A stretch of DNA of 64,000 bases from Marinitoga sp. 38H-ov (GTDB lineage Bacteria > Thermotogota > Thermotogae > Petrotogales > Petrotogaceae): NCBI RefSeq assembly GCF_011057715.1, contig NZ_LNGH01000011.1, forward strand, positions 1-64,000, written 5' to 3'. The position numbers were made by a program, and so were the translations under genes. This document shows, one piece after another, positions 12,553-45,743 of the stretch. The stretch's first letter is position 1; every line of letters starts with the position of its first letter. The notes under the pieces are model-generated. The model was not told the DNA's origin. It worked only from the letters and a program-made list of their open reading frames with translations, and searched no databases.

Positions 12553-14136
12553 TTAAATATCCCATATTTCATTATAATCGTGAGGGGTTTCACAATATTC
12601 GCAAATTAGTTCCCCATTATTATTTCTTATAAAAGAGCCTTTTACATTTTCCCCATGAATAGGATTAGATATACAATTTTCATTTTTACATTTTAATTCT
12701 TCAAATCCATACACTTTAGGCGGTAATTTTATCCTATATTTTTCAGTTACCCTTGAATTTTTTATTATATTAACAGTAATATTTGGAGAAATTGCAGAAA
12801 GCTTTTTAATTTCTCTTTTTGATAAATATTTATCAGGTAAGCTTATATATCCTTTTAATTTTCCGTCTTCAGATTTAAAAATACCATCTGCACTATCAAT
12901 ATCAAAAAATTTCATAATCTTTCTTATTTTTAAAATTGTTAAAAATATTTCATCCGCTCCTTTACCCTTTGCAATATGATCAATTACTGTTCCATTTTCT
13001 ATAGGTTTAATACCTCTTTTTCCATCTTTTTGGACACCTTTTGTTCCATTTATTACTGGAGCACTAATTATATACTCTTCATTATTACAAATATCTGTAT
13101 TATTGTTAGAATTGTATTTTAATGCGCCTCCAAACATAGATAATAATATTATACGTGTCCAATATCCGTTAATTGCTTGTTTTTCCCAACCATTTAATGG
13201 TAATGAATCAAGGAAAGTTGGAATAGTAGGATAAATTTTATGTCTTGGTAAAGGATGGTAAAATTTAACATCTTGAGGAAGCAAAGGAAGGAATTCTTTT
13301 TTAAAAGTTACAGATTTTCTCAAAAAAAATTCTTTTTCTAAAATATCTTCTCCCATTCTCTCTAATTGAAGTCTTGTAAAATACCAAATATTTGCTATAT
13401 CTTTTTGTTTTAAATATTTTTCAATTGACTCAAATATTCTAACTTCAAATCCATTTGATTTCATTTTTTCTATATAATGTTTTGGCATTAAAATTTCTTG
13501 AGGAGCTATTAAATCCACTTTAACATTTTTAAAAATTTTTAATCCATTAACTTTTGAATGTACAGTTCTTCCGTGCAAAAGATCACCAACTAATGCTATA
13601 TGAATATAAGAATTATCAAAATTATTTTTTTCAAGGAAGGTAAATTCATCGAGGAGTTCTTGGGTAGGGTGTTCATGCTTTCCATCACCAGCATTTATAA
13701 AAGAAGGGACAATAAGGTTATTCCTAACAGCAAAATCAGAAACGGATTTTTCAAGTAACTTACAAGTACCTTCTAACTTTGTTCTTACAATAAAAATTGA
13801 ATAATCACTATAACCGGTTAGCATATTAAACGTATCAACATAACTTTCATTTTTATTAAAGGAGGAGAGATTTGAATCGAAGATAGTTACTTTAGCATTT
13901 TTGTGGAATTTTGCAGCATTTATAAAAGATTCTTTAGTTCTTGTACTAGGTTCGATAAATACAATATAAATACCAACATTTCCTTTAATCATAAATTCAG
14001 AAACATCTTCTTTATTAAACCATTTTTCTTTTAATCTTCGGGTTTGATTATACAAAAAAAGTTGTTCATCAATACTTAAATCATTAATAACAGTAAGAGA
14101 CCTACTTAGAAAAGTATCTTTTAACACTTTTTCCAA
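12553..14136 (-). CDS. pyrBI: aspartate carbamoyltransferase, fused catalytic and regulatory chains
   Basis: It condenses carbamoyl phosphate and aspartate, the committed pyrimidine step. Residues 1-330 form the catalytic chain: EPSTRTKESF binds carbamoyl phosphate, and KHEHPTQELLDEF and HPLPRHK follow. From about residue 365 a PyrI-like chain begins (GIKPIENGTVIDHIAKGKG) and ends with a zinc ribbon (CKNENC, CEYC), expected to bind nucleotide effectors. The same fusion is known in Thermotoga maritima. The start is taken as TTG 14136, eight bases after GGGAGG; a GTG at 14145 lies inside that site. It is the first gene of the pyr operon. Confidence 0.94.
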   Translation of the reverse strand: MEKVLKDTFLSRSLTVINDLSIDEQLFLYNQTRRLKEKWFNKEDVSEFMIKGNVGIYIVFIEPSTRTKESFINAAKFHKNAKVTIFDSNLSSFNKNESYVDTFNMLTGYSDYSIFIVRTKLEGTCKLLEKSVSDFAVRNNLIVPSFINAGDGKHEHPTQELLDEFTFLEKNNFDNSYIHIALVGDLLHGRTVHSKVNGLKIFKNVKVDLIAPQEILMPKHYIEKMKSNGFEVRIFESIEKYLKQKDIANIWYFTRLQLERMGEDILEKEFFLRKSVTFKKEFLPLLPQDVKFYHPLPRHKIYPTIPTFLDSLPLNGWEKQAINGYWTRIILLSMFGGALKYNSNNNTDICNNEEYIISAPVINGTKGVQKDGKRGIKPIENGTVIDHIAKGKGADEIFLTILKIRKIMKFFDIDSADGIFKSEDGKLKGYISLPDKYLSKREIKKLSAISPNITVNIIKNSRVTEKYRIKLPPKVYGFEELKCKNENCISNPIHGENVKGSFIRNNNGELICEYCETPHDYNEIWDI

Positions 14137-14172
14137 CTTAACCACCTCCCAAAAAATAATTTATTCTCGAAA

Positions 14173-14201
14173 ATAATACACAATTTTTTCTTAAAAATCA
14201 A
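14173..14201 (-). promoter_or_regulatory. pyr operon promoter
   Basis: Minus-strand TTGATT (14196-14201), 17 bases and TATTAT (14173-14178), preceded by TTGTG, lie about 35 bases before the TTG start of pyrBI. The leader is too short for an attenuator. The same arrangement, with nearly the same leader, occurs before uraA at 26324-26352. Confidence 0.75.
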
Positions 14202-14225
14202 TTAATTAAATGTAACGCAAAAATT

Positions 14226-14257
14226 AAAAAACCCCCTGATAATTTAGGGGGTTTTTT
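14226..14257 (-). terminator. terminator of the tRNA operon
   Basis: CCCCC and GGGGG arms (14232-14236, 14247-14251) are flanked by A6 and T6, directly after the CCA end of tRNA-Phe. Its symmetry would also stop plus-strand transcripts. Confidence 0.9.
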
Positions 14258-14332
14258 GGTGGCCAGGGACAGAATCGAACTGTCGACACCTGGATTTTCA
14301 GTCCAGTGCTCTACCAACTGAGCTACCTGGCC
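14257..14332 (-). tRNA. tRNA-Phe (GAA)
   Basis: The 76-base minus-strand sequence folds as a cloverleaf. The acceptor GGCCAGG pairs with CCTGGCC, the anticodon arm is CTGGA-CTGAAAA-TCCAG with anticodon GAA, the T arm is GACAG-TTCGATT-CTGTC, and the CCA end is encoded. It is the last of three tRNA genes on this transcript. Confidence 0.95.
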
Positions 14333-14342
14333 TCTAATAAAA

Positions 14343-14418
14343 TGGTGGGTGCTGCAGGGATCGAACCTACGACCTTCTGCTTGTAAGGCAGACGCTCTCC
14401 CAGCTGAGCTAAGCACCC
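14343..14418 (-). tRNA. tRNA-Val (TAC)
   Basis: A 76-base minus-strand cloverleaf with acceptor GGGTGCT, anticodon arm TCTGC-CTTACAA-GCAGA (anticodon TAC), T arm GTAGG-TTCGATC-CCTGC and encoded CCA. It lies 7 bp from tRNA-Glu and 10 bp from tRNA-Phe. Confidence 0.95.
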
Positions 14419-14425
14419 ACTTCTC

Positions 14426-14501
14426 TGGCGCCCCCAACGGGATTTGAACCCGTGCCTTTGGCGTGAAAGGCCAATGTCCTAGGCCGCTAGACGATGGGGG
14501 C
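14426..14501 (-). tRNA. tRNA-Glu (TTC)
   Basis: A 76-base minus-strand cloverleaf with acceptor GCCCCCA, anticodon arm TTGGC-CTTTCAC-GCCAA (anticodon TTC), T arm CGGG-TTCAAAT-CCCG and encoded CCA. It is first in the tRNA operon, about 17 bases from the promoter. Confidence 0.95.
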
Positions 14502-14517
14502 ATCACAACCGAAATAT

Positions 14518-14546
14518 ATAATATCAAAAAAAAGATTAAATATCAA
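14518..14546 (-). promoter_or_regulatory. tRNA operon promoter
   Basis: Minus-strand TTGATA (14541-14546), exactly 17 bases and TATTAT (14518-14523) lie 16 bases before tRNA-Glu, a usual distance for a stable RNA promoter. Confidence 0.75.
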
Positions 14547-14689
14547 TAAATCAAATATTTAAATTATGTAAAATTTGTTTTTTTAAAAATATATTTAATT
14601 TACATATTTTTAATTTTGATTTTATTTTCTTTTCATATTATTTTTGATAAAATCGCGGTGTATAAAATTAAAATTTAATATTATTATTT

Positions 14690-14826
14690 CCTCTTCCTGT
14701 ATAATCCCAATAATATGGTTTGGGAGTCTCTACCAGACAGCCGTAAACTGTCTGACTACAGGGAGAGGGGTGTGGTATTATTTATAATCGCGCCTCTCTT
14801 CCTGAGAGGCGCTTTTATTTTTTAAA
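14690..14826 (+). promoter_or_regulatory. purine (guanine-class) riboswitch controlling the pur operon
   Basis: The aptamer has the conserved core: TATAATC, ATAATATGG, GTCTCTACC, CCGTAAA and CTGACTAC. P1 pairs 14690-14701 with 14757-14768, P2 is 14706-14724 and P3 is AGACAG/CTGTCT (14735-14753). The discriminating base in GACTAC is C, as in guanine/hypoxanthine aptamers; adenine aptamers have U there. 14759-14772 can pair over 14 positions with 14791-14804 as an antiterminator that excludes both P1 and the terminator stem. Ligand binding should therefore end transcription before purE, a genetic OFF switch. Confidence 0.95.
14790..14826 (+). terminator. riboswitch terminator
   Basis: GCGCCTCTC (14790-14798) pairs with GAGAGGCGC (14804-14812) and a T-rich tail follows. 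It is the expression platform of the upstream aptamer; purE begins at 14843. Confidence 0.93.
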
Positions 14827-26398: not shown

Positions 26399-26432
26399 TA
26401 AAAAAACGGAGTAGAATATATCCACTCCGTTT
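26399..26432 (-). terminator. mbx operon terminator
   Basis: Arms ACGGAGT/ACTCCGT (26406-26412 with 26424-26430) are followed on the minus strand by seven T. It lies just after the last mbx gene (stop at 26437). Confidence 0.88.
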
Positions 26433-26436
26433 ATTA

Positions 26437-28275
26437 TTATTTTTCATAACCCGTTAAGTAAAAATCTATTCCTTGTGCAGCTTTATGACCGTCCGCAACT
26501 CCATGAATAATATCCGGACCATTTACTATATCCCCACCAGCAAATAACCAAGGAACACCTAAAACGTGATTATACTCATCTGTTTTTATTCTTCCTCTTT
26601 CTATAGTAATTTTCTCTTTTATGTCTTCTGGTAAGTATGAATAATCAGGCATTTGACCAATTGATTCTACAACCATATCTGCTTCAATTTCTAATGTTTG
26701 AGATTCATCATATTTTGGATTAAATCTTCCGTTTTCATCAAAAATTGATAAAACTTTCTTGAATCTTGCTTTTTTAATTTTATCTCCTTCAGTTACTATT
26801 TCTATTGGACCCCAACCAGTATGGAAAATTACACCTTCTTCTCCACCTTCATGTTTTTCATCCCAATCAGCAGGCATTTCATCTAATGTTCTTTCTAAAC
26901 TTACAACGTGAACTTCTGACTTTCCATATTCTTTATTTTGTAATCTAACCATAGTTCTGGCAACGTCCATTGCAACATTACCCCCACCAATAACTACTAA
27001 TTTTTTAGGGATATATGGTTTTGGTCCATCACCAATTACATAATACTTCATTTCTTTTAAAATAACCATAGCTTGTTTAACCATTGGATGATCTGTTCCT
27101 GGAACACCTGTTGTCCTTCCTAAAGTAAATCCAGTGGAAACAAATACTGCATCATAATTATCTTTTAATTCTTCAAAAGTTACATCTACACCAACTTTTG
27201 TATTAAATTTAAATTTAACTCCTAATGATTCAATATATTTCCAATCTTTTTCAAATGATTCTAATGGCAATCTATATGTTGGTCCTCCATAATTTAAAAC
27301 TCCACCAGGTCTTTTTTCTGCTTCATAAACTGTTACATCATAACCCATTAATATCAAATAATATGCAGCAGATAAACCAGCAGGACCTCCACCAATAATA
27401 GCAACTTTTTTATCCGTTTTTTTAATTATTTGTTGTTTTTGTTTTAATACGTTATCATATTCTTCAGCAGGAATTTGATCGACAATATATCTTTTTAACC
27501 ATCTTATCGATACAGCTTCTCCCCTATGACCTATAGTACATGCAGTTTCACATTTATGAGTACACATTTTTCCACAAACTAAAGGTAATGGGTTTGTTTT
27601 ATACAACCATCTTAAACCTTCTTCTACATCATCTTCATATACTGATCTAATATAATCAGGAATATCCATATGAGCAGGACATGTTTTTGTACAAATTCCA
27701 CAGTCAACACATCTTGCTGCTTCCTCTATTGCTTGTTGTTTTGAAAATCCTTTTACAACTTCTAAGAATGTTTTCTTTCTTGTATCGGCATCTAATATTT
27801 CCATTGGTATTCTTTCTAAATCTAACAAATCTGTATCTTCTGTTCTTGTATAGCCATCTTCATATTCAATTTGATGAATTCCATCTTTTTTTGGTAAAAA
27901 GAAGAATGAGTTAGGATTTGTATCAATATGAATATATTCTTTTGACATTGTTAATGATCCTGTTGTACAAATATCTACACATAATGCACAGAAAGTACAT
28001 CTTCCATAATCAATTGCTGGTCTTTCAGGTTTTGATCCTTCTTCATCTGGAAGTTCAGGTATATTAATCATATTTATAGCTTCTGTAGGACAAATTTTTG
28101 AACAAGTACCACATCCGATACATAAGTCCCAATCATTTTTATGAAAACCTCTATAATTAGCAGCAGCTTCTCTAGGTTCCTTTAAAATATTATCCATTGG
28201 AATTGTAACAGGTTTTTTTGTCATATATTTCCATGCTTTTATTGGAGCAAAAAAGCTTTTTTTTCTTTCTGACAT
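26437..28275 (-). CDS. mbxN: MbxN-like iron-sulfur subunit fused to an NfnB/GltD-like flavoprotein
   Basis: 612 residues. Residues 50-105 are a NuoI/MbxN-type double [4Fe-4S] ferredoxin (C52, 55, 58, 62; C93, 96, 99, 103). Residues 180-250 carry the GltD/NfnB N-terminal cysteine sets (CVDCGICTKTCP at 189-199; C234, 238, 242, 246). An FAD site (VAIIGGGPAGLSAA near 291) and an NAD(P) site (VVIGGGNVAMDVART near 430) follow, with AGGDIVNGPD near the end. Archaeal MbxN is only the first part. The fusion suggests that the complex exchanges electrons with NAD(P)H as well as ferredoxin; this is inference. Last gene of the operon. Confidence 0.88.
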   Translation of the reverse strand: MSERKKSFFAPIKAWKYMTKKPVTIPMDNILKEPREAAANYRGFHKNDWDLCIGCGTCSKICPTEAINMINIPELPDEEGSKPERPAIDYGRCTFCALCVDICTTGSLTMSKEYIHIDTNPNSFFFLPKKDGIHQIEYEDGYTRTEDTDLLDLERIPMEILDADTRKKTFLEVVKGFSKQQAIEEAARCVDCGICTKTCPAHMDIPDYIRSVYEDDVEEGLRWLYKTNPLPLVCGKMCTHKCETACTIGHRGEAVSIRWLKRYIVDQIPAEEYDNVLKQKQQIIKKTDKKVAIIGGGPAGLSAAYYLILMGYDVTVYEAEKRPGGVLNYGGPTYRLPLESFEKDWKYIESLGVKFKFNTKVGVDVTFEELKDNYDAVFVSTGFTLGRTTGVPGTDHPMVKQAMVILKEMKYYVIGDGPKPYIPKKLVVIGGGNVAMDVARTMVRLQNKEYGKSEVHVVSLERTLDEMPADWDEKHEGGEEGVIFHTGWGPIEIVTEGDKIKKARFKKVLSIFDENGRFNPKYDESQTLEIEADMVVESIGQMPDYSYLPEDIKEKITIERGRIKTDEYNHVLGVPWLFAGGDIVNGPDIIHGVADGHKAAQGIDFYLTGYEK

Positions 28276-28284
28276 CTTCTCACC

Positions 28285-29400
28285 TCACCTATCTATTTCT
28301 GGAGAACATACACCCATAGTATCCAACCATATAGCAACATCTTCTAATCTAGTTCCTGGTAAATATTTTTCAATACCTAATAATCCTTGAGGATAAGAAG
28401 CACCTCTAACAGCTATTCTGTATGGTTTGTTTTCTCCGTCGGACACAATAAAGTAACCATAATCTCCTCTAGAAGATTCAACATGAGCATATACTTGACC
28501 TTTAGGTACTCTCCACCTTAAAGCACTTCCTCTTGAAATTTTAGCTCTAATTGGACCTTCTTTAGGCATTTTATCTAAAACTTGTCTTATAATTCTAATT
28601 GATTGTTTTATTTCTTCAAATTTCATAGATAATCTGTCATATGCAAAAGACACACCTTTATGAACAGGAACGTCAAATTCTACTTGATCATATCTTGCAT
28701 ATGGTTCAACTTTTCTTATATCATATGCTTCTCCTGTAGTTGATCTTAATCCAATACCTGTAACTCCTAATTCCCAACATACTTCAGCTGATAAAGGGGC
28801 AGCTGCTTTAAGTCTTTTTTCCATTACAGGGTTTCTTAAAATTAAATCTTCATATTCAGGTAAACGTCTTTCTATATCATCCATTAATTTTTCTATTTTC
28901 TTTTCTATTCCTTCTGGTAAATCTTTTCTTACACCACCTGGAACAATATACATATGATAAATTCTTGCTCCTGTTATTGCTTCAAAAATATCAAGAATTA
29001 AATCTCTATCTGAGATTGCCCAGTTAGGACCAGTATATAATCCTGTAGGGCCACCAATACCTCCAAATGACATCATGTGAATTGCTACTCTAGCCATTTC
29101 TAATATTAACATTCTAATCCAATGTGCTCTTTCAGGAACTTCTATTTTTGCTAATGTTTCAATTCCCATTGCATATACCATTTCATTTATATCTGGTTCA
29201 GGAACACAAATTCTTGGAATTAATGCAAGATTATTCATCCATAATCTTCTTTCCATTAATTTTTCAAAACCTCGATGAAGCATTCCAGGTAATGGTCTAG
29301 CCTTTTCTACAATATCGCCATCTACATATAAGTGAACACTGAAATTTCCATGCATACCTGGATGGTTAGGACCTAAAAATAATTTCAACTCTCTTTTCAT
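28285..29400 (-). CDS. mbxL: Mbx large subunit (NuoD/hydrogenase-large-subunit relative)
   Basis: 371 residues. LGPNHPGMHGNFSVHLYVDG and MLHRGFEKLMERR at the N-terminus, and SRGDYGYFIVSDG near the end, define the NiFe-hydrogenase/complex I large-subunit fold. A true hydrogenase has two CxxC pairs for nickel. Here only single cysteines remain at each site (Cys65 in PRICVPEPD; Cys365 in GVCSPEIDR), so a standard NiFe centre is unlikely. This resembles archaeal Mbx/Mbs rather than Mbh. It overlaps mbxK by 4 bases. Confidence 0.9.
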   Translation of the reverse strand: MKRELKLFLGPNHPGMHGNFSVHLYVDGDIVEKARPLPGMLHRGFEKLMERRLWMNNLALIPRICVPEPDINEMVYAMGIETLAKIEVPERAHWIRMLILEMARVAIHMMSFGGIGGPTGLYTGPNWAISDRDLILDIFEAITGARIYHMYIVPGGVRKDLPEGIEKKIEKLMDDIERRLPEYEDLILRNPVMEKRLKAAAPLSAEVCWELGVTGIGLRSTTGEAYDIRKVEPYARYDQVEFDVPVHKGVSFAYDRLSMKFEEIKQSIRIIRQVLDKMPKEGPIRAKISRGSALRWRVPKGQVYAHVESSRGDYGYFIVSDGENKPYRIAVRGASYPQGLLGIEKYLPGTRLEDVAIWLDTMGVCSPEIDR

Positions 29401-29912
29401 TCTGCTTCACCTTCTTTCGGAATGAAATCTACTTTGTAATCTCTTACATCAAATTTTTTCTTTGAATAAGCTAAAGGATCAAAATCTTTTCTTAGTGGTG
29501 GTATATCATCCCATAATTCTAAGAATAAAGGTTTTTTGGATTTTTCATTTCCTTCAAATTCAACACCAAAAAATTCATGAACATCTCTCTCATAATATTC
29601 TGCACCTGGATAAATAGAAGTTATTGTTCTAAATTTAGGATTATCCCTATCTATTTTTGTTCTAACATTAATTGTAATTGGATTATCCCAGTTATATATA
29701 ATATAAACTAATTGAAATTTATTTTCTTTAATCCAATCGATACAAGTTAATAATGTTAATTGTTTCCAACCTTGGGCTTTTAAATAAGCTAAAATACTTT
29801 GTAATTCTTCGTTTTCTACATCAATTGCAAATTGTTTTTCTGACACAATATCAAAATTTATTGGATTAAATTTATTTTTTAAATCATTAATAATATCATT
29901 CATGGAATTCAT
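29397..29912 (-). CDS. mbxK: Mbx NuoC-like subunit
   Basis: 171 residues of the complex I 30-kDa (NuoC) family, which packs against the large and small subunits and carries no cofactor. FRTITSIYPGAEYYERDVHE and EFFGVEFEGN are the family signature. The C-terminus DIPPLRKDFDP is where it joins the large subunit. Start ATG 29912 is 10 bases after GGGGAGGTG; ATG 29903 is an alternative. It overlaps mbxJ by 17 bases. Confidence 0.92.
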   Translation of the reverse strand: MNSMNDIINDLKNKFNPINFDIVSEKQFAIDVENEELQSILAYLKAQGWKQLTLLTCIDWIKENKFQLVYIIYNWDNPITINVRTKIDRDNPKFRTITSIYPGAEYYERDVHEFFGVEFEGNEKSKKPLFLELWDDIPPLRKDFDPLAYSKKKFDVRDYKVDFIPKEGEAE

Positions 29913-30489
29913 CTTTTACATACACCTCCCCAAGGGCTCTAATTTGGTTTCTCTTATACCAATCATTATATTTCAAATATCTCTTCCAGCCTTGTGCATC
30001 GCCCTTGTTTATCATATCTAATAATGTCCTAAATCCATTCATTACCGCTTCTGGTCTTGGCATACAACCTGCTATATATAAATCTACTGGAAGATAATAA
30101 TCTAATCTTGATATAACCGCATATGAATCATAATAAATTCCGCCATTTAAAGTACAGGACCCAAAACCTACAACGTATTTTGGAGTTTGCATTTGCTCAT
30201 ATGTATAAATTACCCTTCTTAAAGTTTTAACACTTAAATAACCAGTTATCAATAATACATCTGCTTGTCTTGGTGTAGCCATTGGCCCCATACCAAATCT
30301 TTCCATATCAAATCTAGAAGTCATTGTTGGAGGTAATTCTATAGCTCCACATCCAGTACAATAATGTAACATCCATAATGATTTACTTCTGAATATATTT
30401 CCGAATTTTTCCCAGAATGTTTTTGTATCTCTACAATCTAATTCATTAACATCTATTTCATTAATTTTTTCATTTTCATTTAAAGCCAT
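29896..30489 (-). CDS. mbxJ: Mbx small subunit (NuoB-like, proximal [4Fe-4S])
   Basis: 197 residues. The cluster ligands are Cys44 and Cys47 (HYCTGCGAIELPP), the cysteine of GFGSCTLNGG near 112 and that of YIAGCMPRPEAVMNG near 143. This matches the N2-type proximal cluster of complex I and group 4 hydrogenases. FGMGPMATPRQADVLLITG is the family core. It hands electrons to the large-subunit active site. Confidence 0.93.
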   Translation of the reverse strand: MALNENEKINEIDVNELDCRDTKTFWEKFGNIFRSKSLWMLHYCTGCGAIELPPTMTSRFDMERFGMGPMATPRQADVLLITGYLSVKTLRRVIYTYEQMQTPKYVVGFGSCTLNGGIYYDSYAVISRLDYYLPVDLYIAGCMPRPEAVMNGFRTLLDMINKGDAQGWKRYLKYNDWYKRNQIRALGEVYVKDEFHE

Positions 30490-31391
30490 ACGCTCACCCC
30501 CAAACCGGTGAAGATTATAATTAAAGCTTGTATAAATGCTAATAATAGTGGAACTTTAAAATAAAACGCTACAACTTCATCAATCTTAAATCTCCCCATA
30601 ACATTACCAATCATTGTTGCTAAGATATATACAAAGAAATATTTAATTAAAAATGTTATTACGGTTCCTCCGCCTAAGAATAAATTAACAAATAATCCTA
30701 CTTCAATAAATTGTGCAAATTCATGTTGTAACATTAACAAACCTAAATGTTTCCCACTATATTCTACTAATGGACCTGATGCTATTTCAGCAGGAGCAAT
30801 AGGAGTATCAAATGGTTTTTTACCTAACATACCTAGTAACGAAATAAAGGCTACTATTGTTCCTAATGGCATTCTAAATAAATTCCAACCTAAAATACCC
30901 ATTCCTTGTTGTGCTTGAGCAATACCTGATATTGAACCAGTTTTATAACCATATATTAAAGATAAAACTACTATTAAAAATGGCATTTCATATCCTAAGT
31001 TTTGTGTTAATCCTCTCATAACCCCAATACTTGCCCAAGGGTTTCCAGAACCTGATGCACTCATAGCCATTCCTAATAACCCAATAGCTAATAAATATGT
31101 AATTACAAAGAAACTATCTAATCCCTTAAAAACTACAAAATTTCCTGCTGGAACAAAAATCAATGTTGCCATAGTTCCACCCAAAGCCATAATAACTCCA
31201 AAATCATATATAAATCCATGAGAAATTGAACCTTTACTCCATAACTTAAATATATCTAAAAATTGTTGATAAAATGGAGGTCCCATTCTTTTTTGACCCT
31301 TCGCAACAACTTTTCTAGCTATTCCTGATAAAGTTGTTTGCCAAAAGAAAGCAAGTAATACAATTCCTATAGCTGAAAAGAAAGTTGTCAT
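30480..31391 (-). CDS. mbxM: Mbx membrane anchor subunit (NuoH-like)
   Basis: 303 residues with about eight membrane segments. ARKVVAKGQKRMGPPFYQQF and LGKKPFDTPIAPAEIASGPLVEYSGKH (a charged loop) are NuoH/HyfC hallmarks; the loop links the quinone-like cavity region to the peripheral arm. It is expected to transmit redox energy to the antiporter-like subunits. Start ATG 31391 follows GGGGTGAT and overlaps the preceding gene by 4 bases. Confidence 0.92.
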   Translation of the reverse strand: MTTFFSAIGIVLLAFFWQTTLSGIARKVVAKGQKRMGPPFYQQFLDIFKLWSKGSISHGFIYDFGVIMALGGTMATLIFVPAGNFVVFKGLDSFFVITYLLAIGLLGMAMSASGSGNPWASIGVMRGLTQNLGYEMPFLIVVLSLIYGYKTGSISGIAQAQQGMGILGWNLFRMPLGTIVAFISLLGMLGKKPFDTPIAPAEIASGPLVEYSGKHLGLLMLQHEFAQFIEVGLFVNLFLGGGTVITFLIKYFFVYILATMIGNVMGRFKIDEVVAFYFKVPLLLAFIQALIIIFTGLGVSVWL

Positions 31392-33229
31392 ATTTTATCA
31401 CCCCACATAATAATCGCTGTAATTATTAATGAAATCCAAAATACAGTATAAGCAGGATTATCATTAAAGAACCATGTTTTTACTAATTTACCAAATTCTT
31501 CTACTCTCATAGCAATTGCTTCATATAACTTTTCAAAAGATGGGTGATTTTTATACATTCTTTCAAATGGCGCATAGAAGCTTTGAGAATAATGATATTT
31601 ATCTGGATCATAAATAAATTCAGATGATGTATATGTATCCATTAATCCAACTTTTTTTGATTTTGGTAATAATGCAAATAAAATCAATGCTGCAATAAAT
31701 CCACCAGCAAACACTAATGTTACTATGAATGAATCCCATTGGCCGCTTGGACCAAATACTTTAAATCCTTCAACTACAATAGGTTTAATGTTTAAAGTAG
31801 TTTCTATTTCACCAATAAACCTTAACATTAATCCAGGATATACTCCAAATAGTAATGATAATAAAGATAATACAACTAATGGAATTTGCATTAATATTGG
31901 AACTTCTTTTACATCTTTATATTTAGGTGATAATTGACCCAATAATGCACCTGCTAATGGTCTAAATACATATAAGAATGAGCCAACGCTTCCAAAGAAT
32001 GCTGCAAAAGCAATAAATACATTCCCACCTCTAACTAAAGTTTGGAAAATAATCCATTTAGATGCAAATCCACTTAGAGGAGGAATACCAGCTACAGAAA
32101 TAATCGCTAATAAATATGCAGCATATGTTAAAGGCATTTTAAATATTAAACCACCTAATTCTGATATTTTTGTTGTACCTGTTCTATATGCTACTCCTGC
32201 AAAAGCTAAAAACATTGCTGCTGAAGCTATAGCATGATTAAACATATGCATCATACCACCAGCAAAACCAAATTGATTCATTGTTGCTAAACCAATTAAT
32301 ATATATCCAGCGTTACTTACTGATGAATATGCTATTAATCTTTTTACATCATCTTGTTTAATAGCCATTAATGTACCTATAATAATACTTATTCCACCAA
32401 TAACCATTAAAATATAATTTTCAAATGGATATCCCATTATTTTTAAATCTGTTGAAAAAACATTTGCTGAAGGCAAAATTGCTGTTACTAATAATGCTAC
32501 AAATGCTCCCATTTTTTCAATCCCGCCTGCTAACGCTGCTGAATAAATTATTGGAGCATTACCTTGTGAAATAGGCGCTACAACATGAAATGGGAAAATA
32601 CCTAATTCTGCCAATCCTGCTAATATTACTGTAAAGAAAAATAGCATTGCAAATTTAGGATCATTTGATAAGTTATTTATTACCATTTTTATATCAAATG
32701 TATTATATTTTGTATAAACTAATATTAATGAAAATAGCATAAAGAATGAGCCAAATGTACTTACAGCATAATATATTGATGAAGCTTTTCTAGAACTTCC
32801 AAAACCAATAATAAATACAGATGCCCAGACAGCTATTTCCCAGAAAATAAATAATGTTAAGAAATCTTTAGCAAAAAATACTCCTAATGTTCCACCCATT
32901 GCACCTAAGAATAACATATTAAATGATGCCGGATGAGACAATTTTTCCATCCAATATGGAATAAAGAATGACACTGATGCAAATACAGTCATAACAGTTA
33001 TTCCAAAAAACCAAGCAAAATTAGAAGTTACTAAATTTAAAGAAAAATCACCATAATTAAACAAATTGAATACTTCATTTGCTGATTCTTTTAAAAAGTA
33101 AACATTAAATACTGAATATAATGAAATAATAATAGTTAAAAATGATCCTAACTTTTTATTAACCTTTGTTATTAAATATACTGCAAATGAACTTAGTAAT
33201 ATAAAAATTAAAAGTATATTTATATTCAC
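31388..33229 (-). CDS. Mbx antiporter-like subunit (MrpD/NuoL family), long copy
   Basis: 613 residues with about 16 membrane segments; the equivalent of archaeal MbxH'. FLTLFIFWEIAVWASVFIIG carries the conserved TM5 glutamate, and MMHMFNHAIASAAMFLAFAG the TM8/11 histidine region. At the usual TM7 lysine, my eye alignment reads AELGIFPFH, with glutamate instead. The C-terminal extension (DTYTSSEF...MYKNHPSFEKLYE) resembles the lateral-helix tail of NuoL-type proteins. Start is GTG 33229 inside the end of the previous gene. Confidence 0.88.
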   Translation of the reverse strand: MNINILLIFILLSSFAVYLITKVNKKLGSFLTIIISLYSVFNVYFLKESANEVFNLFNYGDFSLNLVTSNFAWFFGITVMTVFASVSFFIPYWMEKLSHPASFNMLFLGAMGGTLGVFFAKDFLTLFIFWEIAVWASVFIIGFGSSRKASSIYYAVSTFGSFFMLFSLILVYTKYNTFDIKMVINNLSNDPKFAMLFFFTVILAGLAELGIFPFHVVAPISQGNAPIIYSAALAGGIEKMGAFVALLVTAILPSANVFSTDLKIMGYPFENYILMVIGGISIIIGTLMAIKQDDVKRLIAYSSVSNAGYILIGLATMNQFGFAGGMMHMFNHAIASAAMFLAFAGVAYRTGTTKISELGGLIFKMPLTYAAYLLAIISVAGIPPLSGFASKWIIFQTLVRGGNVFIAFAAFFGSVGSFLYVFRPLAGALLGQLSPKYKDVKEVPILMQIPLVVLSLLSLLFGVYPGLMLRFIGEIETTLNIKPIVVEGFKVFGPSGQWDSFIVTLVFAGGFIAALILFALLPKSKKVGLMDTYTSSEFIYDPDKYHYSQSFYAPFERMYKNHPSFEKLYEAIAMRVEEFGKLVKTWFFNDNPAYTVFWISLIITAIIMWGDKI

Positions 33230-33230: not shown

Positions 33231-34610
33231 TCACATCCCTCCCGCTATCTTGGAAAGGTAATTAATCATACCTTCTGTGACAAATTGTGGATTAATACTA
33301 ATGTAGATAATAAATGCACCAACTATAACACCTAATAAAGCATATTTTATACATTTTTCAACTTTTAGTCCAGTAACTTCTCCATCTTTTGGATTCCATA
33401 ATTTTACTAACATTCTTATATAATATACTCCTTCTATTAAAGCTGCTAATAATATCAAAATTGGAACAATATAGTTACCAGATTTCATTATTGAAGTTAA
33501 AGATAATATTTTTACATAAAATCCATAAAAAATTGGCAATCCTATTAAAGACATAGCTGAAATTGTAAATCCTAATCCAAGTAAAAATTGTTTTTTGAAT
33601 AATCCATTTAATTTATCCAAATTATCTGTACCTGTTGCAAGATAAATTCCACCTGCAATTGTAAACATTACAACTTTTGCTAATGAATTATTTAAAATTT
33701 GCATCATAGCAATTTCTTTAAATCCAAACAATAATAATGTTGCCGCTAAACCAGCTTGAGCTACAGATGAATAAGCTAGTATCTTTCTAATATTTTTTTG
33801 TTCAAATGCAGCTGCTTCAGCAAAAATAAATGTTAAAACTGATATTGTTAAGAATACTACTTTTAATGTTTCGCTCAATTGAAAAACTTCTGTAAATATT
33901 CTTCCAAAAACTAATATAAATGCTGTGGAATATGCTGATGAAAAAATACCTCCACTTAAATCATTCACATTTCCATAAACATTTTTTACCCATCCATTGA
34001 ACGGAATTAATTTTGCTTCAACTGCAAAGCCTGCAAAAATAAATGTTAATGCTAATAATAGAACATTATTATTTATCATTGGAACTTTAGTGGCCATGTC
34101 TGCCATATTTAATGTTCCAACAGTAGCATATAAAATAATTAATCCTAATAAATATAAATTTGAACCAAGAGCACCTAAAACAATATAGTTAAATGTACCC
34201 TTATATTTTTTTGTCATAGTTGATAAAATGTATCCTGAAATTGAAGCAATTTCTAAAAATACAAATAAATTAAATAAGTCTCCTGTTAACAATAAACCAT
34301 TTAATGAAGCTAAAGATACTAATAATACAGTAGAATATTTTTTCACTGATGAAAAAGAAGCAAATACTGTTAAAGCAAAAACAATGTTTAAAACTATTAA
34401 TCCAAAAATAGAATATTGATCAGCTACTAAGTTAATTCCAAAAGGAGGTTTCCAACCACCTATAATTACTTCAGTTTCTTTCAACAAAAATGCTCCAATT
34501 AAATTAAAAAATATTGCAATTGTTAATAAACCTTTATCAGCTTTTTTAAACATTACTGATAAAAAAGCAAATAATAATGGTATAGCTATCAATAAGACAG
34601 GATTAATCAT
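33231..34610 (-). CDS. mbxH: Mbx antiporter-like subunit (MrpD family), short copy
   Basis: 459 residues from ATG 34610, behind GGGGAGTG; a longer frame overlaps mbxG. LTGDLFNLFVFLEIASISGY holds the TM5 glutamate and KKNIRKILAYSSVAQAGL is the conserved MrpD loop. The TM7 motif reads VEAKLIPFNGW: a lysine is present but two places nearer the proline than in MrpD. Probably one of two ion channels of the complex. Confidence 0.9.
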   Translation of the reverse strand: MINPVLLIAIPLLFAFLSVMFKKADKGLLTIAIFFNLIGAFLLKETEVIIGGWKPPFGINLVADQYSIFGLIVLNIVFALTVFASFSSVKKYSTVLLVSLASLNGLLLTGDLFNLFVFLEIASISGYILSTMTKKYKGTFNYIVLGALGSNLYLLGLIILYATVGTLNMADMATKVPMINNNVLLLALTFIFAGFAVEAKLIPFNGWVKNVYGNVNDLSGGIFSSAYSTAFILVFGRIFTEVFQLSETLKVVFLTISVLTFIFAEAAAFEQKNIRKILAYSSVAQAGLAATLLLFGFKEIAMMQILNNSLAKVVMFTIAGGIYLATGTDNLDKLNGLFKKQFLLGLGFTISAMSLIGLPIFYGFYVKILSLTSIMKSGNYIVPILILLAALIEGVYYIRMLVKLWNPKDGEVTGLKVEKCIKYALLGVIVGAFIIYISINPQFVTEGMINYLSKIAGGM

Positions 34611-34947
34611 TTTTTTCACTCCCCATCTCGTCAAGTTCTAGTGTTCCGTATTTTTCGTATAATTTTCTTACAACTGTTAATGCGAGAGCTGTAACACCAA
34701 CACCAATAACAATAGCAGTTAAAACTAAAGCTTGAGGTAATGGATCAACAAAATTTCCCACATTTGTTTTTGCTCCACTAAATAATATGGGGGCAATTCC
34801 ATCTTTCACGTAACCTGTAGATATAATAAATAAGTTAACTCCTACTTCTAATACATTTAAAGCAACTATTATTTTTATAAGATTTTTCTGTGTTAATAAA
34901 CCATACATTCCTATTAAAATCAATCCAATAAATAAGTATTGTATCAT
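34603..34947 (-). CDS. mbxG: Mbx MrpC/NuoK-like subunit
   Basis: 114 residues with three membrane segments. LNVLEVGVNLFIISTGYVK carries the TM2 glutamate typical of NuoK/MrpC, and DPLPQALVLTAIVIGVGVTALAL is the highly conserved third segment. It has short overlaps on both sides within the operon. Start ATG 34947 follows GAGGGGAAATAA. Confidence 0.93.
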   Translation of the reverse strand: MIQYLFIGLILIGMYGLLTQKNLIKIIVALNVLEVGVNLFIISTGYVKDGIAPILFSGAKTNVGNFVDPLPQALVLTAIVIGVGVTALALTVVRKLYEKYGTLELDEMGSEKND

Positions 34948-35700
34948 TTATTTCCCCTCCTCTGAGAGAAAATCTGAGATTAAATTTGAAAGCTCAGATC
35001 CTACTTTTAATCCAACAAATATATATACAATTGGAACTATACCAGCACTCAATAACTCACCAACAACTCCTGTTGGAATAAAGTTATATAAGAAATATCC
35101 ACCCATGGTTAAACCTAATAAACCAAAAATCAAATATAAACTACCTGCAGTTCCTTCTAAAAATTTAAAAGCTTTAACTTTTGTTTTAAATTCATCATCA
35201 GAAATATAGAATAATAATATAGCTGATGCGATCATAGAGCCACCTGGAAATCCACCACCAGGAGTTAAATGACCATGAATAAATATATAAACACCTGTAA
35301 TGAGTATAATTCCAGCTACAACTCTTACTGCAGCTTTTAAAATAAAGTTGGGAGGAGTTTTAAATTTCATTCTTGATTTTCCACTTAATAATAATCCAAC
35401 TCCCAATGCTGAAACAAATAATACAGTTACTTCACCTAATGTATCAAAAGATCTGTAATTAACAACAATTGAAGTTACCATATTAGCAGAACCGCTTTCA
35501 GCATCTTTTGTTACTTTATACTCAACTGTAGTTACATTTCCATTCACATTCTTTTTTACAAATTTATCAGAAACTCTTTCAGAAATTTTAACTTCACCAA
35601 ATTTTGGAAATACTTTTCCATTCCCTTCAGAATACAAGTTAGTAAAAATGAAAAAACCTAATACTCCAACTAATAATATTGCAATTAATCTTTTCATCAT
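34948..35700 (-). CDS. mbxF: Mbx MrpB-like subunit with MbhE-type N-terminus
   Basis: 250 residues. Residues about 60-110 (YRSFDTLGEVTVLFVSALGV) match the MbhE/MrpA C-terminal piece, and RVVAGIILITGVYIFIHGHL plus TPGGGFPGGSMIASAILL the MrpB domain. The first 55 residues are a hydrophobic helix then an exported charged segment, unusual for MrpB alone. This E+F fusion is also seen in archaeal Mbx clusters. It overlaps mbxD by 4 bases. Confidence 0.9.
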   Translation of the reverse strand: MMKRLIAILLVGVLGFFIFTNLYSEGNGKVFPKFGEVKISERVSDKFVKKNVNGNVTTVEYKVTKDAESGSANMVTSIVVNYRSFDTLGEVTVLFVSALGVGLLLSGKSRMKFKTPPNFILKAAVRVVAGIILITGVYIFIHGHLTPGGGFPGGSMIASAILLFYISDDEFKTKVKAFKFLEGTAGSLYLIFGLLGLTMGGYFLYNFIPTGVVGELLSAGIVPIVYIFVGLKVGSELSNLISDFLSEEGK

Positions 35701-35942
35701 TTTTTATCACCAACCTTTTTAATAGAAAAAAGGGTAAATATAAATACTGCAGTTACTAATCCAGAACCTATTACAGCTTCAGTAATCGCAACATCTGGAG
35801 CTTTCATAAATACAAAAGAAATAACTGATAACATACTTAGAATTGATAAGTATATTATTGAATTAATAATTTTTTTAGATTCAATTGCCAAAAAAGCAAA
35901 AATTAAAAGAGTTATTCCTACTAAAATTTCAACTATTTGCAT
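35697..35942 (-). CDS. mbxD: Mbx NuoJ-like subunit (MbhD/DUF4040 domain)
   Basis: 81 residues from ATG 35942, six bases after GAGGTG; two in-frame ATGs further upstream would sit on or before that site. Three membrane segments. SFVFMKAPDVAITEAVIGSG is the core motif of the MbhD/MrpA-domain family, and its glutamate is thought to be in the ion path. It overlaps mbxC by 14 bases. Confidence 0.9.
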   Translation of the reverse strand: MQIVEILVGITLLIFAFLAIESKKIINSIIYLSILSMLSVISFVFMKAPDVAITEAVIGSGLVTAVFIFTLFSIKKVGDKK

Positions 35943-36270
35943 TTTCATCACCTCTACTTTGGTAGAGTTCATCTAAATCATTTTTTACTAATTTAAATGG
36001 TTTTGCACCATAAATATATGATGCCTTTGCCAAAACAGAACTTCCAACAGGGTTAGTAATAGTCAAAAATATAATTATCAACAATGATTTAATAAACCAT
36101 TCAGGTTGTGCAATTCCTACTCCTAATACCAATGAGAATGTTCCCAAAGTTGTAGCTTTTGTTGCTGCTTGAAGTCTATTATAAACATCAGGCATTCTAT
36201 ATAATCCTAATCCTCCTAAAACATAAAACAGAGCACCTATTATCATAAATATATATCCTATAGCACTCAT
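35929..36270 (-). CDS. mbxC: Mbx MrpG-like subunit
   Basis: 113 residues with three membrane segments. LGGLGLYRMPDVYNRLQAATKA and LIIIFLTITNPVGSSVLAKA are MnhG/PhaG signatures. The C-terminal tail (NDLDELYQSRGDENANS) is cytosolic and overlaps the start of mbxD. Start ATG 36270 follows GGAGGGG. Confidence 0.93.
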   Translation of the reverse strand: MSAIGYIFMIIGALFYVLGGLGLYRMPDVYNRLQAATKATTLGTFSLVLGVGIAQPEWFIKSLLIIIFLTITNPVGSSVLAKASYIYGAKPFKLVKNDLDELYQSRGDENANS

Positions 36271-36515
36271 TTTTTCCCCTCCAAATATCGGGCAATTATA
36301 ACCGTTTCAATAAATGATAATGCCCCATATACTAATGCAATATCTAAATATAATTCACTTTTAAAAAGAAAAGATAAAAATACTATTGTACCTGTTATAA
36401 TAACATTTAAAGTATCAACAGCAACGACTCTATCTGGGGTAGTTGGCCCTTGAATTAATCTAATAACAGAAAAGAATCCACCTATAAAAATTAAAACGCC
36501 GATCAATGTATTCAT
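36267..36515 (-). CDS. mbxB: Mbx MrpF-like subunit
   Basis: 82 residues with three membrane segments. RLIQGPTTPDRVVAVDTLNV and YLDIALVYGALSFIETVIIA are the MnhF/PhaF signatures. The conserved aspartate of TPDRVVAVD is thought to be functional in antiporters. Overlaps neighbours by about 4 bases on each side. Confidence 0.93.
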   Translation of the reverse strand: MNTLIGVLIFIGGFFSVIRLIQGPTTPDRVVAVDTLNVIITGTIVFLSFLFKSELYLDIALVYGALSFIETVIIARYLEGKK

Positions 36516-36997
36516 TTAAATATCCCCCCTAAGATTTTTTCAAATTTTCCAGATACATATTTTTGATTTTCTTCGGGAGAATCACTTTTTACATCAATCC
36601 AATGAATATAAATATTTTCTTCATCTGCATCAATTGAAATGGTACCTGGTGTAAGAGTTATTGAATTTGCTAAAGTCAATTTTCCTACATTCCCCTTTAA
36701 CTTTGTAGGTATTTTTACAAATCCAGGATTAAGCGGTAACTTTGGATTTAAAACTCTTGCAGCTACATCAATATTTGCTTTTACCATTTCAACAATAAAT
36801 ACTGGTACATAAACAAATACAAAAACGAAAAGCTTTGGGATAATTGTAAAATCAAAAGCATAGTCTACAACCTTTGATATTACAAAAGATAATATCAAGG
36901 AAACTAATAAACCTGTAAGTAATTCCGGAGTGCTAAATCCCGTCAAAGCAATCCAGATTACCCATAAGGTCAAAAAAGTTGAAATAAACTTTTTCAA
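36512..36997 (-). CDS. mbxA: Mbx MrpE-like subunit, first gene of the complex
   Basis: 161 residues of the MnhE/MrpE family. Two membrane segments at the N-terminus are followed by a cytosolic domain with LANSITLTPGTISIDADEENIYIHWID, the family core. The start is TTG 36997 behind GGAGGGAGTATT, so initiation may be modest. It opens the 13-gene run, in the same order as archaeal mbxABCDFGHH'MJKLN. arsR lies 24 bp upstream, in the same direction. Confidence 0.92.
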   Translation of the reverse strand: MKKFISTFLTLWVIWIALTGFSTPELLTGLLVSLILSFVISKVVDYAFDFTIIPKLFVFVFVYVPVFIVEMVKANIDVAARVLNPKLPLNPGFVKIPTKLKGNVGKLTLANSITLTPGTISIDADEENIYIHWIDVKSDSPEENQKYVSGKFEKILGGIFK

Positions 36998-37020: not shown

Positions 37021-37332
37021 TTATGAATTTTTTATAATATTTTTTGCTTCATTTAATTCTTGTGAAATAATTCTTTTTCCGTCATACAAAAGTTCTAAAA
37101 CTTCATTATGTTTCAATTTACAAAAAACTATATTACCTTGCTTTTCTTTTGTAATTATCCCATTTTCCTCTAAAATCTTTAAATGTTGAGATATACTCGA
37201 TTGACTTGAATTTAGTTTATCAGTTAATTCGTAAACAGAAAGTTTTTCATTCTCCAATAGTCTAATAATTTTTAACCTAACCGGGTGTGATAAACTTTTA
37301 AATACGTTAGATATTAATTTACATTCGTCCAA
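37021..37332 (-). CDS. ArsR-family transcription regulator heading the mbx operon
   Basis: 103 residues forming a winged helix-turn-helix dimer. HPVRLKIIRLLENEKLSVYE, SQSSISQHLKILEENGIITK (recognition helix) and GNIVFCKLKHNEVLELL are ArsR signatures. There is no CxC metal motif in the recognition helix; cysteines are only at positions 4 and near 68, so the signal may be redox or another ligand. The start is TTG 37332 after GGGAGATG. A 28-base palindrome lies 28 bp upstream, and mbxA follows 24 bp downstream, so it probably represses itself and the mbx genes. Confidence 0.88.
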   Translation of the reverse strand: MDECKLISNVFKSLSHPVRLKIIRLLENEKLSVYELTDKLNSSQSSISQHLKILEENGIITKEKQGNIVFCKLKHNEVLELLYDGKRIISQELNEAKNIIKNS

Positions 37333-37492: not shown

Positions 37493-37519
37493 AAAAAAAG
37501 AGCGCCCAAAACGCTCTTT
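37493..37519 (-). terminator. terminator after the pyrophosphatase gene
   Basis: AAAGAGCG (37497-37504) and CGCTCTTT (37512-37519) with a seven-base T run on the minus strand, 48 bp past the stop at 37567. Confidence 0.88.
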
Positions 37520-42953: not shown

Positions 42954-42967
42954 ATTTTTCCTCCTCC

Positions 42968-44758: not shown

Positions 44759-44771
44759 TTTTATTCCCTCC

Positions 44772-45170
44772 TTATTCGTTAATAGATGTATGTGTTTCTC
44801 CTATAATTGAATCTTGTAATAATTCTCCATTTAAAATATGTTTTTCAATCAATTCTTTTGCTTTATCTCCAGAAATTTTTCCATATAATATTGGTTCTTT
44901 TCCTGGTTCAACAACTTCTACTGTAGGCTCAGCGTGACAATAACCCATACATCCTGTTTGAATAACTCTTATATTTTCTAATTTCTTTTCTTCTATCGTT
45001 TCTAATAATTTATCAAATGTTTCTTTAGCTCCAGCTGCAATTCCACATGTCCCCATAGCAACTCTCAAAGTAATTACATTATCGTTTTCTGCAACTTTTC
45101 TTAAGGATAATTTATCTTTTGCGGATTCCTTTTGTTTTAATAAATCTTCTAAACTTTTTATTTTAGGCAT
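44772..45170 (-). CDS. thioredoxin-like [2Fe-2S] ferredoxin of the hyd operon
   Basis: 132 residues. RVAMGTCGIAAGAKETFD and QTGCMGYCHAEPTVEVV carry the four cysteines of a NuoE-type thioredoxin-like [2Fe-2S] cluster, and FEKLLE-like helices surround them. It lies between hydC and hydB with short gaps, so it is co-expressed; whether it is a stoichiometric fourth subunit or a loose electron carrier is unknown. Similar small proteins occur in other hyd-type operons. Start ATG 45170 follows AAGGAGGGG. Confidence 0.88.
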   Translation of the reverse strand: MPKIKSLEDLLKQKESAKDKLSLRKVAENDNVITLRVAMGTCGIAAGAKETFDKLLETIEEKKLENIRVIQTGCMGYCHAEPTVEVVEPGKEPILYGKISGDKAKELIEKHILNGELLQDSIIGETHTSINE

Positions 45171-45182
45171 AAAAACCCCTCC

Positions 45183-45689
45183 TTAATTATTATCCTTTTC
45201 TTTATACTCTTTAATTAATTTTTTTACATCTTTAGTTGTTAATCTTCCATGCACTTCATCTCCAATCATAACAACTGGAGCCAAACCACAGGCACCTACA
45301 CATCTAACAGCATGAATACTAAACATGCCATCTTCTGTAGTTTCATTTTCTTTAATTCCTAATTGCTTTTTAAATTCTTCTAAAATATCCCCAGAACCTC
45401 TAACATAACATGCTGTTCCTAAACAAACATTAATTGGATATTTTCCTTTTGGTTTCATACTAAAAAAGTTATAAAAAGTTACAACACCATATACATCTGA
45501 AGCATGAACGTCCAATTTTTTCGCAATTATTTTTTGCACTTCAATAGGTAAATAACCTATTATTTCTTGTGCTTTATGTAACACATGAATCAAATAACTT
45601 CTTTTCGTTACTTTATCTTTTTCTTCTAATCCCAATGAATCAATATAAGCTTCTACTTCTTTTAACTTGTTTTCAAGTTCTACGGACAT
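45183..45689 (-). CDS. hydC: bifurcating hydrogenase NuoE-like subunit
   Basis: 168 residues from ATG 45689, behind GGAGGGAACGG; an in-frame ATG at 45722 lacks a site. VLHKAQEIIGYLP and VYGVVTFYNFFSMKPKGKYP are NuoE signatures. The [2Fe-2S] ligands are in VCLGTACYVRGS and VRCVGACGLAPVV. It is the first gene of the operon and pairs with HydB. Confidence 0.94.
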   Translation of the reverse strand: MSVELENKLKEVEAYIDSLGLEEKDKVTKRSYLIHVLHKAQEIIGYLPIEVQKIIAKKLDVHASDVYGVVTFYNFFSMKPKGKYPINVCLGTACYVRGSGDILEEFKKQLGIKENETTEDGMFSIHAVRCVGACGLAPVVMIGDEVHGRLTTKDVKKLIKEYKEKDNN

Positions 45690-45743
45690 TCCGTTCCCTC
45701 CTTGAGATAAATTTATATACAAAAAATATATATATATGAAAAA

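What the first reader, a model, noticed from the sequence alone, without database searches (positions are those of the whole stretch)
26437..28275. MbxN subunit fused to an NfnB/GltD-like flavoprotein: possible NAD(P)H-linked ion pump
Seen: one 612-residue chain joins a double ferredoxin module to a GltD-type module with two more cysteine sets, FAD and NAD(P) sites. Known: archaeal Mbx/Mbs uses ferredoxin and a separate small MbxN. Inference: this complex connects ferredoxin, NAD(P)H and an ion gradient in a single machine, and might even bifurcate electrons. I recall a GltD-like gene beside the Thermotoga Mbx cluster, but no biochemical description of the fused form.
Basis: partly seen in the sequence, partly recalled or inferred. 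Interest (0 to 1): 0.8.

Follow-up and report, generated by a model that had tools for sequence, protein, structure and literature searches.

The report
NADH-fed Mbx sulfur-reductase ion pump
In this Marinitoga-like heat-loving bacterium, and in nearly every relative that has the Mbx ion pump, the subunit that brings electrons in is fused to a flavin enzyme whose sequence says it takes electrons from NADH, so the pump is probably driven by NADH (perhaps with ferredoxin) rather than by ferredoxin alone.

Summary
The ORF at 26437-28275 (-) is one 612-aa chain: an MbxN/NuoI-type 2x[4Fe-4S] module joined to a complete GltD/NfnB-type module. It is the last gene of a 13-gene operon encoding an MBS-type (membrane-bound sulfane reductase) complex. 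It is not a one-off. The fusion matches a curated full-length family (NF010590/PRK13984), is present in T. maritima, and lies directly after mbxL in 69 of the 70 Thermotogota genomes that carry this mbxL. The published 13-subunit T. maritima MBX probably includes it, but in the open literature searched nobody discusses its NAD(P)H module. New here: (i) the phosphate-binding YRR of NfnB is SLE in this protein, and the Glu is conserved in 35/35 main-clade fusions, a pattern tied by experiment to NADH in DsrL; (ii) the Glu ligand of the bifurcating NfnB cluster is Lys (K261, 41/41), as in the non-bifurcating StnC; (iii) the window's genome has no NfnA or NfnB. Bifurcation is therefore unlikely. 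Most likely NADH enters at FAD and electrons run through four [4Fe-4S] clusters to the MBS-type cluster, reducing polysulfide and driving ion pumping: a GltD-type counterpart of complex I's NADH module. Direction and coupling are inferred, not shown.

The parts
26437..28275 (-). Fusion gene, 612 aa: MbxN/NuoI-type 2x[4Fe-4S] domain (residues ~1-120), linker (~120-155), GltD/NfnB-type domain (~155-612) with two more [4Fe-4S] sites, FAD and NAD(P) Rossmann folds
27919..28275 (-). MbxN half (residues 1-119); closest solved relative is 6u8y_N (P. furiosus MBS subunit N)
   Evidence: (94.5 bits, residues 3-116)
27493..27495 (-). Codon of K261, aligned with StnC K170 / TmNfnB E117, the fourth ligand of the [4Fe-4S] cluster next to FAD
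   Evidence: PMC10482914
26893..26901 (-). Codons of S459-L460-E461, aligned with the NADP-phosphate-binding Y310-R311-R312 of TmNfnB; predicts NAD(H)
   Evidence: PMC7596348
28285..29400 (-). MbxL (NuoD/49-kDa type), closest to MbsL; keeps the two MBS cysteines, no [NiFe] site
29397..29912 (-). MbxK (NuoC/30-kDa type)
29896..30489 (-). MbxJ (NuoB type), closest to MbsJ; ungapped match to MbsJ over the cluster motif; three proximal-cluster Cys ligands invariant in 33/33
30480..31391 (-). MbxM (NuoH type)
31388..33229 (-). MbxH' (NuoM/antiporter type, PRK08668 equivalog)
33231..34634 (-). MbxH (NuoN/MrpD type); start codon uncertain (TTG as listed)
34603..34947 (-). MbxG (NuoK/MrpC type)
34948..35700 (-). 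MrpB-like subunit (MbxE/F); assignment by eye
   Evidence: sequence; synteny
35697..35972 (-). Small Mrp-type subunit (MbxD); assignment by eye
35929..36270 (-). MrpG-like (MbxC); assignment by eye
36267..36515 (-). MrpF-like (MbxB); assignment by eye
36512..36997 (-). MrpE-like (MbxA); assignment by eye
37021..37332 (-). ArsR/SmtB-type regulator heading the operon; found at this place only in the Marinitoga-type loci
26404..26432 (-). Terminator-like hairpin directly after the fusion gene (end of operon); consensus match only
37497..37519 (-). Terminator-like hairpin upstream of the operon; consensus match only

Best explanation
The fusion is the electron-input subunit of a membrane-bound MBS-type complex. 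NADH binds the second Rossmann fold and passes a hydride to FAD. Electrons leave one at a time through the two [4Fe-4S] clusters of the GltD part (the one beside FAD probably Lys-ligated and not tuned for bifurcation). They then pass through the two [4Fe-4S] clusters of the MbxN part to the three-Cys proximal cluster in MbxJ at the MbxJ/MbxL chamber, where a sulfur-sulfur bond (polysulfide) is most likely reduced. The redox event in the chamber drives Na+ or H+ translocation by the MbxM, MbxH and MbxH' membrane arm, as in MBS and complex I. The GltD module thus plays the part that NuoEFG plays in complex I. Shown here: domain content, co-occurrence, conserved ligands and cofactor motifs, predicted fold. 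Inferred: NADH rather than NADPH, direction, acceptor, coupling and ion.
For: Full-length family match and fold. The fusion is directly downstream of mbxL in 69/70 genomes and absent without mbxL; the 13-gene order holds in the sampled genomes wherever the contig covers it. Pairwise distances of the two halves and MbxL correlate at r = 0.93-0.95. 16/16 Cys are invariant. MbxJ and MbxL are closest to P. furiosus MBS (230 and 320 bits). The three MBS proximal-cluster ligands are 33/33; the first Cys of the MbxJ CxxC and the two MbxL Cys are 32/33, and these are the ones that MBS mutants show to be dispensable (PMC7684303). YRR->SLE, E461 35/35, with YRR needed for NADP in DsrL and NfnB (PMC7596348). 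K261 41/41 = StnC K170, whose FAD does not bifurcate (PMC10482914). T. maritima mbxA transcription rises 4.36-fold with S0 (PMC9431562).
Against: No biochemistry exists for this complex. NADH to polysulfide has a small driving force, so the number of ions pumped per NADH would be low. An open cluster chain shared with ferredoxin could short-circuit Fd to NAD+. The proposed MBX reaction in the literature is ferredoxin-dependent (PMC9431562). Some Thermotogota lack mbx, yet a review states that all members reduce sulfur compounds, so Mbx is not required for sulfur reduction. Acceptor and direction are inferred by homology only.
Confidence: 0.5

Rival explanations
1. Dual-donor or confurcating pump: reduced ferredoxin docks on the MbxN domain and NADH on the GltD domain, and both feed the same chain to polysulfide, so the complex drains both fermentation reductants as HydABC does for H2.
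For: The MbxN clusters are intact, and in archaeal MBS this subunit carries the path from ferredoxin (PMC7684303). Thermotogota make both NADH and reduced ferredoxin, and the same window encodes a HydABC-type hydrogenase, whose T. maritima counterpart uses both (PMC7795431).
Against: No gating element could be identified; without gating, ferredoxin would simply reduce NAD+. The GltD part may cover the ferredoxin site; no complex model could be made.
Confidence: 0.27
2. Rnf-like use: ferredoxin oxidised at MbxN reduces NAD+ at the GltD module, coupled to ion export.
For: The module has both partner sites on paper; GltD/DsrL-type modules work in both directions (PMC7596348).
Against: The path would bypass the MbxJ/MbxL chamber where the MBS/complex I family couples redox to pumping; the MBS-type three-Cys cluster is strictly conserved; Rnf is already present in this genome and in 97/103 genomes.
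Confidence: 0.12
3. Flavin-based bifurcation at the GltD FAD in the style of NfnAB.
For: The Arg that contacts FAD N5 in NfnB (R187) is conserved as R335 in 41/41.
Against: That Arg is also conserved in non-bifurcating StnC; the NfnB Glu ligand is Lys (41/41); no NfnA or NfnB in the genome; the second flavin branch is missing. Where the same locus does carry nfnA-nfnB next door (f7 clade), the NfnB has the Glu and the fusion keeps the Lys.
Confidence: 0.05
4. Ordinary annotation noise: a GltD-like protein that happens to be next to Mbx, not part of the complex.
For: Generic database names ('putative oxidoreductase', 'glutamate synthase small subunit').
Against: It is the only MbxN-type domain in the operon; 69/70 linkage, correlated divergence and invariant ligands.
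Confidence: 0.02

Closest known systems
MBS, membrane-bound sulfane reductase of Pyrococcus furiosus (PDB 6u8y; PMC7684303)
   Same: Subunit set, MbxJ three-Cys proximal cluster with an ungapped motif, the two MbsL cysteines, two antiporter-like pumps
   Different: MbsN is a separate 208-aa ferredoxin-accepting subunit; here it is fused to a ~450-residue NAD(H)/FAD/Fe-S module
T. maritima MBX (13 subunits; PMC9431562)
   Same: Same complex; an NF010590 fusion is in the T. maritima genome, and the window operon also has 13 structural genes
   Different: The published model draws it as ferredoxin-driven and the paper does not mention the GltD half; only transcript data
StnC / NfnABC-type subunit (Sporomusa ovata 8oh5, Caldicellulosiruptor 9bov)
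   Same: GltD-type FAD module with the Lys at the proximal cluster, feeding a chain of [4Fe-4S] clusters; non-bifurcating FAD in StnC
   Different: StnC is NADPH-linked (YRR), carries a NuoG-like part and feeds a HydBC-type bifurcating module; no ion-pump arm
NfnB/NfnL (T. maritima 4ylf, P. furiosus 5jca)
   Same: Fold (TMt 0.88), Cys ligands, FAD-contacting Arg
   Different: Glu ligand, YRR, NfnA partner, bifurcation; none of these here
DsrL (Allochromatium, Chlorobaculum; PMC7596348)
   Same: NfnB-like body plus a two-[4Fe-4S] ferredoxin domain on one chain; NADH-type variants lack YRR
   Different: The extra ferredoxin domain is C-terminal; partner is the DsrAB sulfite reductase
AegA/YgfT of E. 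coli (PMC8097209)
   Same: N-terminal ferredoxin domain + GltD in one chain
   Different: Scores far below the AegA family cut-off (258 of 1003 bits); linked to formate dehydrogenase H and urate degradation
Respiratory complex I NADH module (NuoEFG)
   Same: Proposed role: NADH input to the NuoI-NuoB-NuoD chain
   Different: Unrelated flavoprotein (FMN/NuoF); would be a convergent solution

Membership tests
NF010590 / PRK13984 'putative oxidoreductase' | Full-length match over the curated cut-off (946 bits) | tested here: met
   1021 bits, residues 4-609
MBS/Mbx-type complex | MbxJ proximal cluster with three Cys ligands and the short (MBS-length) motif | tested here: met
   Ungapped to MbsJ; three ligand Cys in 33/33
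MBS/Mbx-type complex | MbxL with two remaining cysteines, no full [NiFe] set | tested here: met
   C67 and C367 (numbered on the aligned frame), 32/33
MBS/Mbx-type complex | Two antiporter-like pumps plus Mrp-type small subunits | tested here: met
   (small Mrp-type subunits assigned by eye and synteny)
MBS/Mbx-type complex | Stand-alone MbxN as ferredoxin acceptor | tested here: not met
   MbxN is fused to GltD in 69/70 genomes; one genome has a truncated version
MBS/Mbx-type complex | Polysulfide reductase activity | not testable with these tools
   Needs biochemistry
[NiFe] hydrogenase (Mbh/Ech) | Four Cys for NiFe in the large subunit | tested here: not met
   Only two of four
Complex I (Nuo) | Tandem Cys in NuoB and a NuoEFG module | tested here: not met
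   CxxC instead of CC; no NuoEFG in the operon
NfnAB bifurcating transhydrogenase | Glu ligand at the FAD-proximal cluster (TmNfnB E117) | tested here: not met
   Lys in 41/41
NfnAB bifurcating transhydrogenase | NADP-binding YRR motif (Y310-R311-R312) | tested here: not met
   SLE in the window; Glu in 35/35 main-clade rows; f7 clade keeps YRR
NfnAB bifurcating transhydrogenase | NfnA partner | tested here: not met
   Only PyrK carries the DHODB Fe-S domain in this genome; no second GltD-type protein of NfnB strength
NfnAB bifurcating transhydrogenase | Arg near FAD N5 | tested here: met
   R335 in 41/41, but also present in non-bifurcating StnC
Stn (NfnABC) transhydrogenase | StnC Lys ligand | tested here: met
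   K261 = StnC K170
Stn (NfnABC) transhydrogenase | NuoG-like part and StnAB (HydBC-like) partners | tested here: not met
   Neither in the fusion nor in its operon

The most novel reading that the evidence does not exclude
Thermotogota carry a second, independently assembled NADH-oxidising complex on the complex I/MBS scaffold: a GltD-type flavoprotein in place of NuoEFG, working as an ion-pumping NADH (plus ferredoxin) : sulfane-sulfur oxidoreductase. The nucleotide specificity has switched at least once inside the phylum (NADH-type SLE in the main clade, NADPH-type YRR in the clade where nfnAB lies just downstream).
Probability: 0.4. Interest if true: 0.75.

Novelty: new variant of a known kind. 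Interest (0 to 1): 0.56.

Why it matters
Mbx/MBS complexes are treated as ferredoxin-driven links between hydrogenases and complex I. If the Thermotogota version takes NADH through a GltD-type module, then attachment of an NADH dehydrogenase module to this scaffold happened at least twice with unrelated flavoproteins, and published energy budgets for Thermotoga sulfur reduction (all MBX electrons from ferredoxin) have the wrong electron donor. It also gives a clean test bed: E461 and K261 make single-residue predictions about NADH/NADPH choice and about bifurcation.

Tried and rejected
Bifurcation as main mechanism: rejected on ligand, partner and genome content. Assembly chimera: rejected by conservation in 69 genomes. 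Separate translation of the second half: in-frame starts at the junction have 3-nt SD matches against 7 nt at the real start; the best internal one (TTG 224) has 4 nt and lies inside the cluster domain. Distribution outside Thermotogota: the single genome-contig scan with one protein returned only Marinitoga lauensis and an unrelated Bacteroidales GltD, and genome searches can be centred only on held handles, so spread beyond the phylum was not determined. Literature searches for the gene (TM1217, PRK13984, Mbx with GltD or NfnB) found no description of the fusion; subscription reviews (Schut et al. 2013 and later) were not held and may mention it. A search for one Shine-Dalgarno-like pattern in the window was uninformative. 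One search was a short-peptide search and is not used. Searches failed on argument format; one search was a report with a format error.

Full report
WHAT IS THERE. The ORF at 26437-28275 (minus) encodes a single 612-residue chain. Residues 1-120 are an MbxN/NuoI-type domain with two CxxCxxCxxxC motifs; the nearest solved relative of this part is subunit N of the P. furiosus MBS complex (6u8y_N, 94.5 bits). Residues 155-612 are a complete GltD/NfnB-type module: Fer4_20 at 166-270 and Pyr_redox_2 at 289-591. The whole chain matches one curated family, NF010590/PRK13984 'putative oxidoreductase', over its cut-off. AlphaFold2 with 39 fusion sequences gives pLDDT 86.5 and pTM 0.82; Foldseek returns NfnL/NfnB first (5jca_L TMt 0.88; 4ylf_B 0.87), then GltD, StnC and NfnABC.

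THE OPERON. Upstream on the same strand lie mbxL, K, J, M, H', H, G and five Mrp-type genes, 13 structural genes counting the fusion, preceded by an ArsR-type gene. Terminator-like hairpins sit right after the fusion (26404-26432) and upstream of the ArsR gene (37497-37519) (consensus matches only, about as many as in shuffles). MbxJ and MbxL are closer to P. furiosus MbsJ and MbsL (230 and 320 bits) than to complex I or Mbh. The MBS hallmark is present: MbxJ aligns without a gap to MbsJ through the cluster motif, and the three ligand cysteines are conserved in 33/33 loci. The first Cys of the MbxJ CxxC and the two MbxL cysteines are each 32/33; the exceptions are most likely the same divergent locus (L040), which keeps the three ligands. 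[quoted passage not shown]

DISTRIBUTION. 70 of 103 Thermotogota genomes carry this type of mbxL. 69 of them carry the fusion: 55 over the family cut-off, four incomplete in the assembly, ten divergent. No genome has the fusion without mbxL. Among 14 control genomes one is over the cut-off; T. maritima is the only Thermotogota control, and its kind of sequence is what the full-scoring genomes hold. In the sampled genomes the gene order mrpE-F-G-B-B-nuoK-N-M-H-B-C-D-fusion is unchanged where the contig covers it. Distances of the N half, the GltD half and MbxL correlate at r = 0.93-0.95, 0 of 999 permutations reaching it; this is expected of a single old fusion inherited together, and does not separate co-evolution from shared descent. 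The exception, L046, has mbxL followed by a 164-aa MbxN with the GltD part deleted, a short remnant of its C-terminus, then nfnA-nfnB.

COFACTOR LOGIC. Alignment numbering was checked against the papers: TmNfnB E117, R187, Y310-R311-R312 and StnC K170, R239 fall exactly where expected. (a) The NADP phosphate site YRR of NfnB is S459-L460-E461 here; the Glu is conserved in 35/35 main-clade fusions, while all six f7-clade fusions, their NfnB neighbours and the Stn-type reference keep Arg. In DsrL, YRR enzymes use only NADP(H), while enzymes without it (S/T at the first position, often a non-basic third) use NAD(H) (PMC7596348). So the window enzyme should use NADH. (b) The Glu that ligates the FAD-proximal cluster in bifurcating NfnB is K261, 41/41. 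The same Lys in StnC ligates the cluster next to a non-bifurcating FAD (PMC10482914). (c) The FAD-contacting Arg is kept (R335), but it is also kept in StnC, so it does not argue for bifurcation. (d) The genome has no NfnA and no NfnB but does have Rnf and, in this window, a HydABC-type hydrogenase.

MECHANISM. The best-supported reading is NADH -> FAD -> two GltD clusters -> two MbxN clusters -> MbxJ proximal cluster -> polysulfide, with ion pumping by the membrane arm. Domain content, ligands, linkage and predicted fold are shown. NADH choice is a motif-based prediction anchored in measured relatives. Acceptor, direction, coupling and ion are inferred from MBS and complex I. The main rival keeps ferredoxin as a second donor on MbxN. 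An Rnf-like ferredoxin:NAD+ pump is less likely because it would bypass the chamber where this family couples redox to pumping.

COMPARISON AND NOVELTY. The complex is known as MBX in T. maritima, where mbxA rises 4.36-fold with sulfur and the model is ferredoxin-driven (PMC9431562). The passages of that paper read here do not mention a GltD module. GltD modules fused to ferredoxin domains are known in AegA (PMC8097209) and DsrL. What appears new is the recognition that nearly all Thermotogota Mbx complexes carry an NADH-type, StnC-like GltD module as their MbxN subunit. Subscription reviews could not be checked. I file it as a new variant of a known kind.

LIMITS. No complex could be modelled and no coordinates measured; spread outside Thermotogota is unknown; organism names are hidden for most genomes (the 85% identical locus L004 is Marinitoga lauensis).

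Noticed in passing
L046 (G017 C43) 14000-14706: The GltD half of the fusion is deleted: a 164-aa MbxN remains, followed by a ~55-aa remnant of the GltD C-terminus and then nfnA-nfnB. A natural test of whether the pump works without the NAD(P)H module (or an assembly artefact).
   Followed up: partly
L022, L023, L042-L045: In the f7 clade the NADPH-type (YRR) fusion has a NfnB-type gene just downstream; in the loci read directly (L042, and the truncated L046) nfnA and nfnB follow as one run with the mbx genes, NfnB with the Glu ligand of bifurcating enzymes.
   Followed up: partly
L040 (G004 C276): Divergent Mbx; probably the one locus that lost the first CxxC Cys of MbxJ and both vestigial MbxL Cys while keeping the three proximal-cluster ligands, as MBS mutants predict.
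   Followed up: partly
L004 9001-10835 (Marinitoga lauensis): The fusion frame is interrupted near residue 507 (frameshift; probably a long-read indel error, possibly a broken gene).
   Followed up: no
window 41220-45722 (-): HydABC-type [FeFe]-hydrogenase operon (group A6) a few kb upstream of the mbx operon on the same strand.
   Followed up: partly
window 37021-37332 (-): ArsR/SmtB-type regulator at the head of the mbx operon only in Marinitoga-type loci; a candidate sulfur- or redox-responsive switch.
   Followed up: no
main-clade fusions, window residues ~446-455: A conserved insertion of about seven residues (LQxxEYG) just before the second beta strand of the NAD site, absent from NfnB, StnC and the f7 clade; role unknown.
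   Followed up: no
window 12553-14145 (-): 530-aa chain that looks by eye like aspartate carbamoyltransferase fused to its regulatory subunit (PyrB-PyrI).
   Followed up: no
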